This document shows positions 58,283-61,453 of a DNA stretch of 64,000 nucleotides, piece after piece (within the stretch, counting starts at the first letter, position 1; every line of letters starts with the position of its first letter). Source of the stretch: an uncultured Maribacter sp. (GTDB lineage: Bacteria; Bacteroidota; Bacteroidia; Flavobacteriales; Flavobacteriaceae); assembly GCF_947500985.1 (NCBI RefSeq), contig NZ_CANMTX010000001.1:186001-250000 (forward strand), given 5' to 3'. The notes under the pieces were generated by a model. It did not search any database, was not told where the DNA came from, and saw only the letters and a list, made by a program, of their open reading frames with translations. The position numbers were made by a program, and so were the translations under genes.

Positions 58283-58768
58283 ATGCAAAAAGAAACGGTC
58301 TTTACTGATTTAATACGAGAGCATCAGGCGCTGTTATATAAGGTTACTTCAATTTACACCGATAATAAAGAGGACCAAGAAGACCTGTTTCAAGAAATAG
58401 TCTATCAACTTTGGAAATATTTTGACTCGTTTCGCAACGATTCAAAAATAACAACTTGGATGTATCGTGTAGCAATGAATACTTCAATCACATTTATTAA
58501 GAAAAAAAAGAGAAGACCTGATTCTGTTCCCATTGCAGATGCTTTTTTAAAGCAATCAGATACTAATGATGATGCGTACGACGAGCGATTACGATTACTA
58601 TATCAACATTTAAAACATCTAAACACCTTAGAAAAAGGTCTTATTTTTCTTTTACTTGAAGGCAAAAGCTATAAAGAAATAGCACAAATTACAGGGCTGA
58701 ACGATAGCAATGTAGGTACGAAGATATCTCGAATAAAGAAGAAATTAAAAACTAACATGGCAAAGTAA
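58283..58768 (+). CDS. ECF-type RNA polymerase sigma factor
   Basis: This 161-residue sigma factor has region 2 (LIREHQALLYKVTSIYTDNKEDQEDLFQEIVYQLWKYF-type, with DLFQEIV and KITTWMYRVAMN) and region 4 with helix-turn-helix (KSYKEIAQITGLNDSNVGTKI). Regions 1 and 3 are missing, so it is extracytoplasmic-function type. It directs polymerase to a specific promoter set, usually for envelope or stress genes. It starts 109 bp after the small minus-strand frame and is followed 6 bp later by a membrane protein that could act as its anti-sigma factor. Confidence 0.92.
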   Translation: MQKETVFTDLIREHQALLYKVTSIYTDNKEDQEDLFQEIVYQLWKYFDSFRNDSKITTWMYRVAMNTSITFIKKKKRRPDSVPIADAFLKQSDTNDDAYDERLRLLYQHLKHLNTLEKGLIFLLLEGKSYKEIAQITGLNDSNVGTKISRIKKKLKTNMAK

Positions 58769-58774
58769 TATATC

Positions 58775-59374
58775 ATGGAATTAGAAGAACTACAGTCTGC
58801 ATGGACACAAATGAGTGATGAACTAAATCATCAAAAAAAATTAACAAACCAAATAATATTAGATATGACAAAGCAGAAATATCAAAATAAATTTACAACC
58901 ATTACCAAATATGAAACTATAGGTGCCGTAGTCTGTTTTGCTATAGCACTCTTTGTGCTGATAAACTTTGGCAAATTAGATACTTGGTATTTGCAAATTT
59001 GCGGAGTGCTCACCCTCTCATTTCTAATTGTGTTACCTGTAATGGTACTTACAACTTTAAAAAAGATAAAAAACATAGATATTTTAAAAGGGTCTTATAA
59101 AGAAAATTTAAAGTTTTACTTGAAGACAAAGAATAGACTTTTAAGGTTACAACAAATTGGTATAGGCGTTGGATTTGTAGGCCTCTTATTTATAGTACCT
59201 GTAACTTCTAAAATTATTTCGAATAAGAACGTATTCTTAACTAACTTAAAAACTGAGCAATACGTAGTATTTACTATAACATTAATAGTAATGGTGTTTT
59301 TTTGTAGATGGGCATATAAAGGCTACGTTAAAGTAACCCAATCTGCCCAAGAGTTGATACAAGAATTAGAGTAA
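58775..59374 (+). CDS. Polytopic membrane protein, possible partner of the ECF sigma factor
   Basis: This 199-residue protein has a ~45-residue cytoplasmic N-terminus (MELEELQSAWTQMSDEL) and about four membrane helices (residues ~50-68, 74-92, 122-141, 162-180). No zinc anti-sigma HxxxCxxC motif is present, so it is not a canonical ZAS anti-sigma, but tight coupling (6 bp) with the ECF sigma gene suggests it modulates it (inference). The soluble N-terminus ELEELQSAWTQM could be the binding part. Function uncertain. Confidence 0.55.
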   Translation: MELEELQSAWTQMSDELNHQKKLTNQIILDMTKQKYQNKFTTITKYETIGAVVCFAIALFVLINFGKLDTWYLQICGVLTLSFLIVLPVMVLTTLKKIKNIDILKGSYKENLKFYLKTKNRLLRLQQIGIGVGFVGLLFIVPVTSKIISNKNVFLTNLKTEQYVVFTITLIVMVFFCRWAYKGYVKVTQSAQELIQELE

Positions 59375-59379
59375 ATTCT

Positions 59380-60009
59380 CTATTCAGTAAGTTTTTTTTG
59401 CACGTAATTTAAAATCAACATCCAATTCATTTTTAGTAGGAGGGAAGCTGTTGGTACATTATCATCTGCAATTGCAGAAATAATAGAATCATGCTGATTG
59501 TCAGATTTGTTGTAGAAAGAATCATCATTAGTAAAGGCACGTTCATAAAAGAAGATGCGTGTCTTTAAATCATGTAGAATTTTAAGCGCCAATTTGTTTT
59601 TATAACCTTGGGTCAATAATCTATGAAATTCTAAATCAGCCTGAATTCTATCGATAGCATTTGTTGCATTTTCAAAAACCTCTTGTTGATTTTTTAAATT
59701 AACGATATCTTCTTGACTAAACTCCGTATTTTCAATAGCCATCACTTCTAAGTTCGCTACTAGTTCATATAAGTCTTCCGCTTCTTCAACATCAAGTTCA
59801 GAGATTATGAACCCTCTATTGGGTATAGCCTTAATAATATGTGCCTGTTGCAATTGTGTTAACGCCTCTCGTATTGGAGTTACGCTAACATTCAAATGTC
59901 GTGCAAGTGCAGCTAAGTTGATGGTTTTACCAGTTTTCAAATTACCCGTAATCATCTCTAACAACAGGTAATCGCGCACTTGATCTCTTAAATTTATTTT
60001 AACCAGCAT
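59380..60009 (-). CDS. GntR/FCD-family transcriptional regulator
   Basis: This 209-residue protein has an N-terminal GntR winged helix (LAALARHLNVSVTPIREALTQLQ) and a C-terminal FCD ligand-binding domain (~75-200, ELVANLEVMAIE, FHRLLTQGYKNKLALKIL, HDSIISAIADDN). FCD regulators respond to small carboxylates. A 12-bp palindrome (60026-60037) sits 17 bp before its ATG, which fits autoregulation. Its gene ends 5 bp from the convergent membrane protein gene. No metabolic gene adjoins it; the nearest upstream genes are the small-ORF array. Ligand and targets unknown. Confidence 0.85.
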   Translation of the reverse strand: MLVKINLRDQVRDYLLLEMITGNLKTGKTINLAALARHLNVSVTPIREALTQLQQAHIIKAIPNRGFIISELDVEEAEDLYELVANLEVMAIENTEFSQEDIVNLKNQQEVFENATNAIDRIQADLEFHRLLTQGYKNKLALKILHDLKTRIFFYERAFTNDDSFYNKSDNQHDSIISAIADDNVPTASLLLKMNWMLILNYVQKKLTE

Positions 60010-60092: not shown

Positions 60093-60128
60093 AAAAAAAG
60101 ATATGAGTGATGAATTCATATCTCTTTT
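60093..60128 (-). terminator. Terminator of the 37-codon small-gene array
   Basis: On the minus strand AAAAGAGATATGA pairs with TCATATCTTTTTT around a 9-nt loop with one mismatch, followed by a T-run. It lies 5 bp after the stop of the last small ORF (60133), so the array looks like one transcript ending here. Confidence 0.75.
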
Positions 60129-60132
60129 ACTA

Positions 60133-60246
60133 TTAGTATGCTAAATGTCTTTCAATAAATAATAGTTTTCTCTGCTTGTCTTTTATAGCATTTAATAAAT
60201 TATACTTAATAGAAGTTATAGGTAATACTCTTTGAAAATTTTTCAT
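60133..60246 (-). CDS. Array small ORF 5 (diverged), 37 residues
   Basis: ATG at 60246 to TAA at 60133, 37 codons. It is the last member of the array, 60 bp after ORF 4. It has the same length and pitch as the other four and a homologous leader. The sequence is strongly diverged but aligns without gaps: M-[KR]-x-F-x-R-x-x-P at residues 1-9, Lys22, Arg26 and Arg33 are shared. The product is basic (net about +6), has no signal peptide, and ends in RHLAY. Probably a diverged paralog; function unknown. Confidence 0.6.
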   Translation of the reverse strand: MKNFQRVLPITSIKYNLLNAIKDKQRKLLFIERHLAY

Positions 60247-60306
60247 GTTATTCGTTTTTAGATTCGGTGATTAGCCTAGTGATTGATGAATGTTTGTTGT
60301 AACTAT

Positions 60307-60420
60307 TTAATGGGTATGATTTCTTGATGATGCCCATTGTACTCTTTTACTATTTTTAAAACTTGAAAAAAATGAATTTCTTCTTGTTTCTGTTGGGGTA
60401 TTTCTAATAAAAGTTCTCAT
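60307..60420 (-). CDS. Array small ORF 4, 37 residues
   Basis: ATG at 60420, TAA at 60307. The product opens MRTFIRNTPTETRRNS and ends SSRNHTH, with a central FFSSFKNSKRVQW. Compared with ORF 3 I count six synonymous codon changes and one replacement (Ser20 to Thr in ORF 3). Strongly basic (about +7), no membrane segment. Same family as ORFs 1-3. Confidence 0.65.
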   Translation of the reverse strand: MRTFIRNTPTETRRNSFFSSFKNSKRVQWASSRNHTH

Positions 60421-60481
60421 GATGTTTGTTTTTAAGTTCGGTGATTAGCCGAGTGATTGATGAATGTTTATTGTAACTATT

Positions 60482-60595
60482 TTAATGAGTATGATTTCTT
60501 GATGATGCCCATTGTACTCTTTTACTATTTTTAAAAGTTGAAAAGAATGAATTTCTTCTTGTTTCCGTTGGTGTGTTTCTGATAAAAGTTCTCAT
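60482..60595 (-). CDS. Array small ORF 3, 37 residues
   Basis: ATG at 60595, TAA at 60482. It differs from ORF 4 by Thr20 in place of Ser20 and otherwise only by synonymous codons. It retains Trp29 and the His35-Thr-His37 terminus. Confidence 0.65.
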   Translation of the reverse strand: MRTFIRNTPTETRRNSFFSTFKNSKRVQWASSRNHTH

Positions 60596-60655
60596 GATGT
60601 TTGTTTTTAAGTTCGGTGATTAGCCGAGTGATTGATGAATGTTTGTTGTAACTAT

Positions 60656-60769
60656 TTAATGGGTGTGATTTCTTGATGATGCCCATTGTACTCTTTTACT
60701 GTTCTTAAAACTTGAAAAGAATGAATTTCTTCTTGTTTCCGTCGGTGTATTTCTGATAAAAGTTCTCAT
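60656..60769 (-). CDS. Array small ORF 2, 37 residues
   Basis: ATG at 60769, TAA at 60656. The protein is identical to ORF 4 although several codons differ (for example AAG/AAA, AAC/AAT, CAC/CAT, ACG/ACA). This is the pattern expected when the peptide itself is under selection. Confidence 0.65.
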   Translation of the reverse strand: MRTFIRNTPTETRRNSFFSSFKNSKRVQWASSRNHTH

Positions 60770-60830
60770 GATGTTTGTTTTTAGTTTCGGTGATTAGCCG
60801 AGTGAATGATGAATATTTATTATAACTATT

Positions 60831-60944
60831 TTAATGAGTATGATTTCTTGATGATGCCCATTGTACTCTTTTACTGTTCTTAAAACTTGAAAAGAATGAA
60901 TTCTTTCTTGTTTCTGTCGGTGTGTTTCTGATAAAAGTTCTCAT
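60831..60944 (-). CDS. Array small ORF 1, 37 residues
   Basis: ATG at 60944, TAA at 60831; the first unit in transcription order. Residue 14 is Lys where ORFs 2-4 have Arg. The frame is open 28 codons further upstream (to 61028), but that extension lies outside the repeat and is absent from the other copies, so the internal ATG is the start. The product is 37 residues with Arg2, Arg6, Arg13, Lys22, Lys25, Arg26, Arg33 and Trp29. Confidence 0.65.
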   Translation of the reverse strand: MRTFIRNTPTETRKNSFFSSFKNSKRVQWASSRNHTH

Positions 60945-61453
60945 GATGTTTGATTTTATATTGATGATTAATAATTTTCTTATACTTACAAGACGAGGGT
61001 ATTTGAAATTTGTTACAGTACTATGCATAAAAAGGTACTATTTTTAACAAAAAACTATTTAATTATTTTATTTACATACTGATTTACAGTAAGTTAAATT
61101 AATTCGAAGATTTTGTAATTTTAACATTATTTTCGAAATCCATTAATATAATTTCATTTTAAGGGTAGGAGAAAGGGCTAAAAACAAATATAAAAGCATA
61201 TATAATATGATATGAATTAAAAATTATCATAAAGTCTCTTAAAAGTTTGCTAGTTTGAAGCCAACTAATGCTAAATAATTGAAATACAAATCATATCTTT
61301 GCAGAACTTTAAAGGGATGCAGATGATTCTTGCAATGACCTTACAACAAATAGGATAATTAGGTTTACTCAAAAAACTTACCGTTTGTTTTACACGTCAC
61401 CACGTATTTCAATTCCTTTATTGCAAAATCTATTATTATCATTAAAATTACGA
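60945..61453. other. Intergenic region between the small-gene array and the cold-shock protein gene
   Basis: About 500 bp of very AT-rich sequence. The left part is the leader of the array (minus strand), with no clear -33/-7 pair. The right part is the long leader of the cold-shock gene (see 61294). No gene or RNA family recognised. Confidence 0.5.
61294..61301 (+). promoter_or_regulatory. -7 promoter element upstream of the cold-shock-domain gene
   Basis: TATCTTTG is a perfect TAnnTTTG match. Transcription from here would give a leader of about 145 nt before the ATG at 61454, long for this window and reminiscent of cold-shock mRNAs (inference). No -33 TTG at ideal spacing. Confidence 0.5.

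What the first reader, a model, noticed from the sequence alone, without database searches (positions are those of the whole stretch)
60133..60944. Tandem array of five 37-codon small genes in one transcript
Seen: five consecutive minus-strand ORFs of identical length at a constant 174-175 bp pitch, closed by one terminator. Four encode nearly the same basic peptide, and most codon differences between them are synonymous (ORF 4 versus ORF 3: six synonymous, one replacement). This suggests the peptides are made and selected. I recognise no family. Possible roles include peptide signals, small RNA-binding proteins, antimicrobials or dosage-driven regulators; none is shown by the sequence.
Basis: partly seen in the sequence, partly recalled or inferred. 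Interest (0 to 1): 0.85.

Follow-up and report, generated by a model that had tools for sequence, protein, structure and literature searches.

The report
Tandem stress-controlled 37-residue protein genes
Marine bacteria of the genus Maribacter and their kin carry rows of near-identical tiny genes for a positively charged 37-residue protein that the catalogues searched do not name, behind a promoter that appears to be switched by two stress regulators, so it looks like an overlooked stress-response protein made in bulk.

Summary
Four near-identical 37-codon minus-strand ORFs and a fifth, diverged 37-codon ORF lie at 174-175 bp pitch, in Maribacter. They encode a protein: differences are mostly synonymous, and the frame is kept, mostly in tandem arrays, in the genus (36/36 genomes at E<=1, 35 strongly) and in 39 of 237 sampled genera of the family, with core TPTESRRxxFFSNFKxSKRVxWAExRNY. 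Pfam, NCBIfam, PHROGs, PDB, phage and plasmid searches found no relative.

The new result is the control region. 66 of 75 loci follow an ECF-sigma-type promoter, TGTAAC-N16-CGTC, always with that spacing. The same element precedes a conserved ECF sigma operon (sigma, anti-sigma-like, DUF4252) in 56 of 59 loci. Abutting the -35 box is a 23-bp dyad, AGTACY-N11-RGTACT. It, or a variant with one changed half-site base, also precedes DUF4870-PadR-PspC genes and resembles the published site of a PadR autoregulator.

Best explanation: the arrays are multi-copy effectors of an envelope-stress response, repressed by PadR and driven by the ECF sigma. Regulation is inferred from sequence; the peptide's action is open, probably nucleic-acid or protein binding rather than membrane insertion.

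The parts
60831..60944 (-). array ORF 1, 37 aa, MRTFIRNTPTETRKNSFFSSFKNSKRVQWASSRNHTH
60656..60769 (-). array ORF 2, 37 aa, MRTFIRNTPTETRRNSFFSSFKNSKRVQWASSRNHTH
60482..60595 (-). array ORF 3, 37 aa, one replacement (S20T)
60307..60420 (-). array ORF 4, 37 aa, same peptide as ORF 2 with 8 synonymous differences
60133..60246 (-). array ORF 5, diverged 37-aa unit; 7 open Maribacter versions including this one compared, pN/pS 0.37
60992..61017 (-). predicted ECF sigma promoter TGTAAC-N16-CGTC
   Evidence: only match in the window, mean 0.05 in shuffles
61017..61039 (.). predicted PadR operator, dyad AGTACC-N11-AGTACT abutting the -35 box
60945..60991 (-). stretch from the -10 box to the first ATG (47 nt), ending in the A-rich TAAAATCAAACATC
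60093..60123 (-). terminator-like AT-rich hairpin with T run
   Evidence: not reported by the stricter scan

Best explanation
The array is a multi-copy operon for a translated, strongly basic, soluble 37-aa protein of a family confined, as far as sampled, to part of the Flavobacteriaceae. Its promoter is read by an autoregulated ECF sigma factor (operon sigma, anti-sigma-like, DUF4252). It is gated by a PadR-type repressor that is encoded with DUF4870 and PspC membrane proteins and binds the dyad that abuts the -35 box. Envelope stress would release PadR and activate the sigma factor, so one ~0.9-kb mRNA with five ORFs gives a burst of the peptide, which then acts stoichiometrically by binding a nucleic acid or an acidic protein partner. 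Shown here by sequence: selection on the frame, array architecture, shared promoter element, shared dyad. Inferred: that this sigma and this PadR act at these sites, that PadR represses, that the signal is envelope stress, and the peptide's target.
For: Coding: pN/pS 0.07-0.08 for pairs at least 90% identical; 204 members in 77 of 80 loci, 175 exactly 37 aa, all 204 on the match strand. ECF promoter: TGTAAC-N16-CGTC in 66 of 75 loci with at least 450 nt upstream, gap 16 in all 66 although 14-18 was allowed, against 2 of 7500 dinucleotide shuffles and 5 of 480 non-overlapping neighbour windows, one of them with gap 16. Cognate sigma: same element, gap 16, upstream of the ECF gene in 29 of 30 Maribacter loci (loci were held for 30 of 35 matching genomes) and 27 of 29 readable loci of other genera. 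Own genome: six TGTAACA-N-CGTCT sites, all with one spacing though 13-17 was allowed, including array and sigma operon, against 2 for the reversed control pattern. Dyad: 65 of 75 loci, all gap 11, all abutting GTAAC, against 2 of 480 clean control windows, both gap 15. PadR: dyad upstream of DUF4870-PadR-PspC genes, exact in 18 of 28 readable loci, and with one changed half-site base in the other 10. cdPadR1 binds TACT(N11-12)AGTA in its own promoter (PMC5050560, passages). Single strong PadR and sigma matches in 30 of 30 array genomes chosen for each search. PspC, PadR and DUF4870 above Pfam cutoffs. Joint ECF/PadR control has a precedent in Listeria sigC-lstR (PMC6624303, passages). Of 67 multi-copy loci 65 have the ECF element exactly and 2 with one mismatch; 7 of 8 single-copy loci lack it, the eighth being cut by a contig end.
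Against: No expression, ribosome or proteome data. The loci are related, some from one genome, and were gathered by a peptide pattern, so the counts are not independent events. pN/pS rises to about 0.5 for the most diverged pairs, where pS is 0.73 and saturated. At looser stringency (GTAAC-N16-CGTC) the own genome has 17 sites against 12 for the control. The loose dyad has 29 places in the own genome against 13 for the control; I looked at four chosen by resemblance, and three lie inside coding frames. 1 of 30 and 2 of 29 sigma loci lack the exact element. In 10 of 28 PadR loci one half-site is changed, and two loci could not be read. HAAS scored below its Pfam cutoff (23.8 vs 27 bits). The AlphaFold model is weak (mean pLDDT 67.9, pTM 0.29). 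Solo copies without this promoter exist, so the peptide is also used outside this circuit. A housekeeping-type (TAnnTTTG) promoter was not searched for systematically.
Confidence: 0.62

Rival explanations
1. A structural or housekeeping small protein (for instance ribosome- or nucleoid-associated) made constitutively in bulk; the arrays only raise gene dosage.
For: Basic, pI 12, GRAVY -1.3; strong matches in 35 of 36 Maribacter genomes; A-rich start contexts before the ORFs (by eye).
Against: The conserved promoter is of ECF type and abutted by a dyad; the family was found in only 60 of 397 genomes of its own taxonomic family, unlike a core ribosomal protein.
Confidence: 0.15
2. A small regulator that feeds back on the circuit, for example by binding PadR, the anti-sigma factor or the sigma factor.
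For: Promoter elements shared with both regulators' operons; some solo copies lie beside LytS-like kinase and 2TM genes or ABC transporter genes (labels by eye).
Confidence: 0.12
3. Antimicrobial or toxin peptides (bacteriocin, or type I toxin like the tandem ldr genes).
For: Small, basic, tandem, nearly identical copies.
Against: Hydrophilic, with helical moment at residues 9-22 below shuffled sequence (0.12 vs 0.29; residues 25-34 0.36 vs 0.40); strict conservation across genera; no confirmed match in viral contigs, plasmids or phages; the only NCBIfam signal was leader_Chryseo in 1 of 25 members at E = 0.047. I saw no export or immunity gene among the 25 largest neighbour clusters, but most were not annotated and ORFs under 70 aa were not considered.
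Confidence: 0.06
4. The unit is a repeated regulatory RNA, and the ORFs are incidental.
For: Spacers are conserved within some arrays and carry short inverted repeats (by eye).
Against: Variation in the four window copies is concentrated at third positions and synonymous; spacers look unlike between genera while the 37-aa frame stays (by eye); the one Rfam match up to E 1 is E 0.92 and lies in the neighbouring gene.
Confidence: 0.02

Closest known systems
Listeria monocytogenes sigC-lstR-lmo0421 (PMC6624303, passages)
   Same: An ECF-type sigma factor and a PadR-type repressor jointly and inversely control one promoter region
   Different: There the target is an FtsW/RodA-like gene in the sigma operon itself; here the target is a separate tandem array of 37-aa genes, and the sigma and padR genes lie in two other places
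HAAS-PadR / PspC envelope-stress systems (PMC11237479, start of abstract and passages)
   Same: PadR regulator encoded with a PspC membrane protein that has a weak HAAS match
   Different: DUF4870 does not occur in the text (find); Bacteroidetes occurs once, in another context; the passages seen name no tandem small-peptide target
C. difficile cdPadR1 operator (PMC5050560, abstract and passages)
   Same: Autoregulatory inverted repeat TACT(N11-12)AGTA with a GTACTAT half-site
   Different: Other phylum; here the dyad also abuts the -35 box of an ECF-type promoter at a second target
sigma / hypothetical / DUF4252 loci of Porphyromonas gingivalis (PG0214-0216, PG0985-0987; PMC10101095 and PMC10434189, passages)
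   Same: Same gene order; listed as up-regulated in strain FLL361 (PMC10101095) and in an iron-response table (PMC10434189)
   Different: Orthology was not tested; no small-gene array is described in the passages seen
Tandem ldr/ibs type I toxins and phenol-soluble modulins (recalled, no call)
   Same: Tandem near-identical genes for very small peptides
   Different: Those peptides are hydrophobic or amphipathic (recalled); this one is hydrophilic, pI 12, without amphipathic helix

Membership tests
Targets of an ECF sigma factor (ECF regulon) | -35/-10 element shared with the sigma factor's own promoter at fixed spacing | tested here: met
   66 of 75 array loci and 56 of 59 sigma loci, gap 16 in all that match
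Targets of an ECF sigma factor (ECF regulon) | transcript lost when the sigma factor is deleted | not testable with these tools
   needs a mutant
PadR-controlled genes | operator dyad shared with the padR operon promoter | tested here: met
   exact in 18 of 28 padR loci, one changed half-site base in 10 of 28; 65 of 75 array loci
PadR-controlled genes | binding of PadR to the dyad | not testable with these tools
   needs EMSA or footprint
HAAS-PadR-PspC system | PadR beside a PspC and HAAS domain protein | tested here: inconclusive
   PadR and PspC above cutoff; HAAS 23.8 bits, cutoff 27
Any named protein family (for the 37-aa peptide) | curated family match | tested here: not met
   25 members against Pfam, NCBIfam and PHROGs: nothing below E 0.03; PDB profile search none up to E 5; PADLOC not searched
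Bacteriocin / leader peptide | double-glycine leader | tested here: not met
   no double glycine in the aligned members (by eye)
Bacteriocin / leader peptide | export or immunity genes nearby | tested here: inconclusive
   none recognised by eye among the 25 largest neighbour clusters, most of them not annotated
Type I toxin | hydrophobic membrane-spanning peptide | tested here: not met
   GRAVY -1.34 for the window peptide, net charge +4 to +8 over 168 distinct members of 34-38 aa
Type I toxin | antisense RNA antitoxin | not tested
   no transcript data

The most novel reading that the evidence does not exclude
An uncatalogued small-protein family forms the main output of an envelope-stress circuit in marine Flavobacteriaceae: tandem gene copies deliver a peptide burst only when a membrane-linked PadR repressor lets go and an ECF sigma factor is on, an AND gate built into one 50-bp promoter.
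Probability: 0.5. Interest if true: 0.8.

Novelty: new variant of a known kind. Interest (0 to 1): 0.7.

Why it matters
Proteins under 50 residues are often missed by annotation. Here is one that is conserved across tens of genera, amplified in tandem, and tied by its promoter to two regulators, so its function becomes directly testable. If right, it gives Bacteroidota an envelope-stress output with a defined sigma factor, repressor and operator. The promoter/dyad pair also offers a search key for the rest of the regulon.

Tried and rejected
Neighbouring ECF sigma in the window (58283-58768) as the driver: not the first choice, since its upstream region lacks the TGTAACA-N13-17-CGTC pattern, whereas the sigma gene at G000:C1:658993-659499 has it.

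GntR gene next door (59380-60009) as regulator: a neighbour cluster in 27 of 77 loci; arrays in Eudoraea and Robiginitalea mostly have other neighbours and keep the dyad.

Conserved neighbours as a clue to function: the neighbourhood differs by genus (cold-shock-domain protein in Maribacter; an EF-G-like protein in Eudoraea, by eye), so neighbours say little.

Amphipathic membrane helix: helical moment lower than shuffled. A fold search was not run because the model is low-confidence. Fifth ORF by profile: not found at E<=10 in its own genome; placed in the array by position, length and spacer only.

The first neighbour control for the dyad gave 52 of 549, 50 of them with gap 11: it was inflated because the near-palindrome also lies upstream of the divergent neighbour; 69 overlapping windows were excluded and it fell to 2 of 480. 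The ECF control was 5 of 549 before and 5 of 480 after. Dropped before counts: 3 of 80 loci without a whole member and 2 of 77 with under 450 nt upstream; one of 30 sigma loci and two of 30 PadR loci where my regular expression did not find the gene (the two also).

Literature: 'Maribacter' + 'small proteins' + 'tandem' 0 papers; SKRVRW, SKRVQW, PTESRR 0 papers; the listings show no paper on these arrays by title or abstract start. [quoted passage not shown] psychrophilum; the passages seen mention no such array.

Full report
What is there. Minus-strand ORFs of 37 codons lie at 60831-60944, 60656-60769, 60482-60595, 60307-60420 and 60133-60246, with 175, 174 and 175 bp between the four repeat copies. 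The first four encode one peptide with one replacement each in copies 1 and 3; variable sites by codon position are 0, 2 and 11. The fifth encodes another peptide, but the 60 bp before it is a copy of the array's own spacer. Seven open Maribacter versions of it, this one included, were compared: pN/pS 0.37.

Where it is. The window is G000:C1:186001-250000 of a 4.25-Mb genome. Its genus is Maribacter: genomes that the search tool calls 'same genus' have contigs of the same length and match as named Maribacter records (for example G031:C2, 1103697 bases, and M. spongiicola NZ_SOAY01000011.1). With the single peptide, 36 of 36 genus genomes match at E<=1; the weakest, 0.77, is a 68%-complete genome, and the other 35 reach 1.6e-5 or better, three of them (G003, G016, G030) only through more divergent copies. 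With a 25-member profile, 60 of 397 genomes of the family and 39 of 237 genera match at E<=0.01, this genome included. Draws of 296 genomes from the order and 296 from the phylum gave 5 and 3 matching genomes, this one included, all of the same family; the first look scores at most 25 candidates a genome, so remote kin may be missed. Named genera include Maribacter, Saonia, Eudoraea, Robiginitalea, Ulvibacterium, Muriicola, Poritiphilus, Pricia, Cerina and Lentiprolixibacter (80 loci kept of 85 confirmed). No match was confirmed in viral contigs, plasmids or phages.

It is a protein. In 77 of the 80 loci there are 204 members, 175 of exactly 37 aa, all on the match strand; 67 loci have 2-5. 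For pairs at least 90% identical pN/pS is 0.07-0.08, rising with distance to about 0.5 where pS is saturated at 0.73. Over 147 distinct 37-aa members the best kept residues after M1 are R26, T10, R33, W29, K25, F18, S19, S24 and V27. Spacers look unlike between genera, but an A-rich stretch before the ATG recurs (by eye). No Pfam, NCBIfam or PHROGs family matched below E 0.03 among 25 members, and no PDB chain up to E 5. In 37 of 58 Maribacter main-locus copies a nearest relative lies in the same array, 58 of 160 over all loci, so copies are partly homogenised in Maribacter and partly kept as positional types elsewhere.

The promoter. Reading the upstream regions side by side showed one conserved block. 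TGTAAC-N16-CGTC occurs within 450 nt of 66 of 75 loci, gap 16 in all 66 though 14-18 was allowed; shuffles gave 2 of 7500; clean neighbour windows gave 5 of 480, one of them with gap 16. Of the 9 without it, 2 have it with one mismatch at the right spacing and 7 are single copies in other settings. By copy number: 65 of 67 multi-copy loci exact, 1 of 8 single-copy loci, that one (L095) being cut by a contig end. The loci are related and not independent. This is the shape of an ECF promoter (established knowledge; PMC9723704, passages, also links a CGT box to ECF factors in a flavobacterium).

The sigma factor. In the own genome TGTAACA-N13-17-CGTCT has six sites, all with the same spacing, against 2 for the reversed pattern. 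One is the array; one precedes genes for an ECF sigma, an anti-sigma-like protein without Pfam match and a DUF4252 protein. Others precede a DUF4870 protein, a small secreted protein and an NAD(P)-binding protein (the last two by eye); the sixth has no clear ORF. The sigma gene is found in 35 of 36 Maribacter genomes and in 30 of 30 array genomes of other genera that I chose, with the element in 29 of 30 and 27 of 29 readable loci, always gap 16. So the arrays share the promoter by which this sigma factor appears to control itself. The looser pattern GTAAC-N16-CGTC is near background, 17 against 12.

The dyad. Directly upstream, sharing the T of TGTAAC, lies AGTACY-N11-RGTACT: 65 of 75 loci, gap 11 in all though 7-15 was allowed, all 65 abutting GTAAC. 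Clean neighbour windows gave 2 of 480, both gap 15. The loose dyad has 29 places in the own genome against 13 for the control. I looked at four others, chosen by resemblance: three lie inside coding frames, and one, AGTACTATGTGTTACATAGTACC, lies upstream of DUF4870, PadR and PspC genes. Of 28 readable PadR loci 18 have it exactly and the other 10 carry a version with one changed base in one half-site, just upstream of the DUF4870 gene (16-17 of 19 positions of the query, next best 12-14). C. difficile cdPadR1 binds TACT(N11-12)AGTA in its own promoter (PMC5050560, passages). So PadR is the likely ligand of the dyad, and its place against the -35 box suggests repression.

How it most likely works. 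PadR with PspC and a weak HAAS match is the layout proposed for membrane-stress signalling (PMC11237479, passages). In Listeria an ECF-type factor and a PadR repressor control one promoter inversely (PMC6624303, passages). By this reading the array fires when PadR is released and the sigma factor is free, giving several peptide copies per mRNA. The peptide is hydrophilic (GRAVY -1.34, pI 12), not amphipathic as a helix, and AlphaFold draws two short helices at low confidence (residues 9-22 and 25-34, mean pLDDT 67.9). A soluble nucleic-acid- or protein-binding effector fits better than a pore or bacteriocin. This last step is inference.

Limits. There is no expression evidence, and the stimulus of the sigma-DUF4252 operon is known here only by analogy with Porphyromonas loci of the same gene order (passages).

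Noticed in passing
L035-L043, L045, L046: Several Maribacter genomes carry an array at another place with two further peptide types: MKASITRTATE(S/T)RTGQYFSSFSNSKRTQWAQYRN-like and a type with SPTESRRFTFF and a variable C-terminus.
   Followed up: partly
L112, L143, L161, L163: Single copies without the ECF/PadR elements sit beside ABC transporter genes or before LytS-like kinase and 2TM-protein genes (labels by eye), another membrane-signalling setting.
   Followed up: partly
L174, G000:C4:584802-584828: An ECF-type promoter match with no clear downstream ORF; possibly a small RNA or small ORF.
   Followed up: no
L175 and L238: DUF4870 membrane proteins lie behind both an ECF-type element and the PadR dyad, a second link between the two regulons.
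   Followed up: partly
G003:C12 and G003:C2 (L043, L044): One Maribacter genome has copies with stops inside the match and many copies of the second type.
   Followed up: no
L017, L021, L024, L097, L108: Contigs end inside the arrays or carry a run of N beside a copy, so copy numbers from draft assemblies may be too low.
   Followed up: no
window 58283-59374: ECF-type sigma gene followed by a 199-aa protein without Pfam match, near many Maribacter arrays (clusters 3 and 6); its upstream lacks the array's promoter element.
   Followed up: partly
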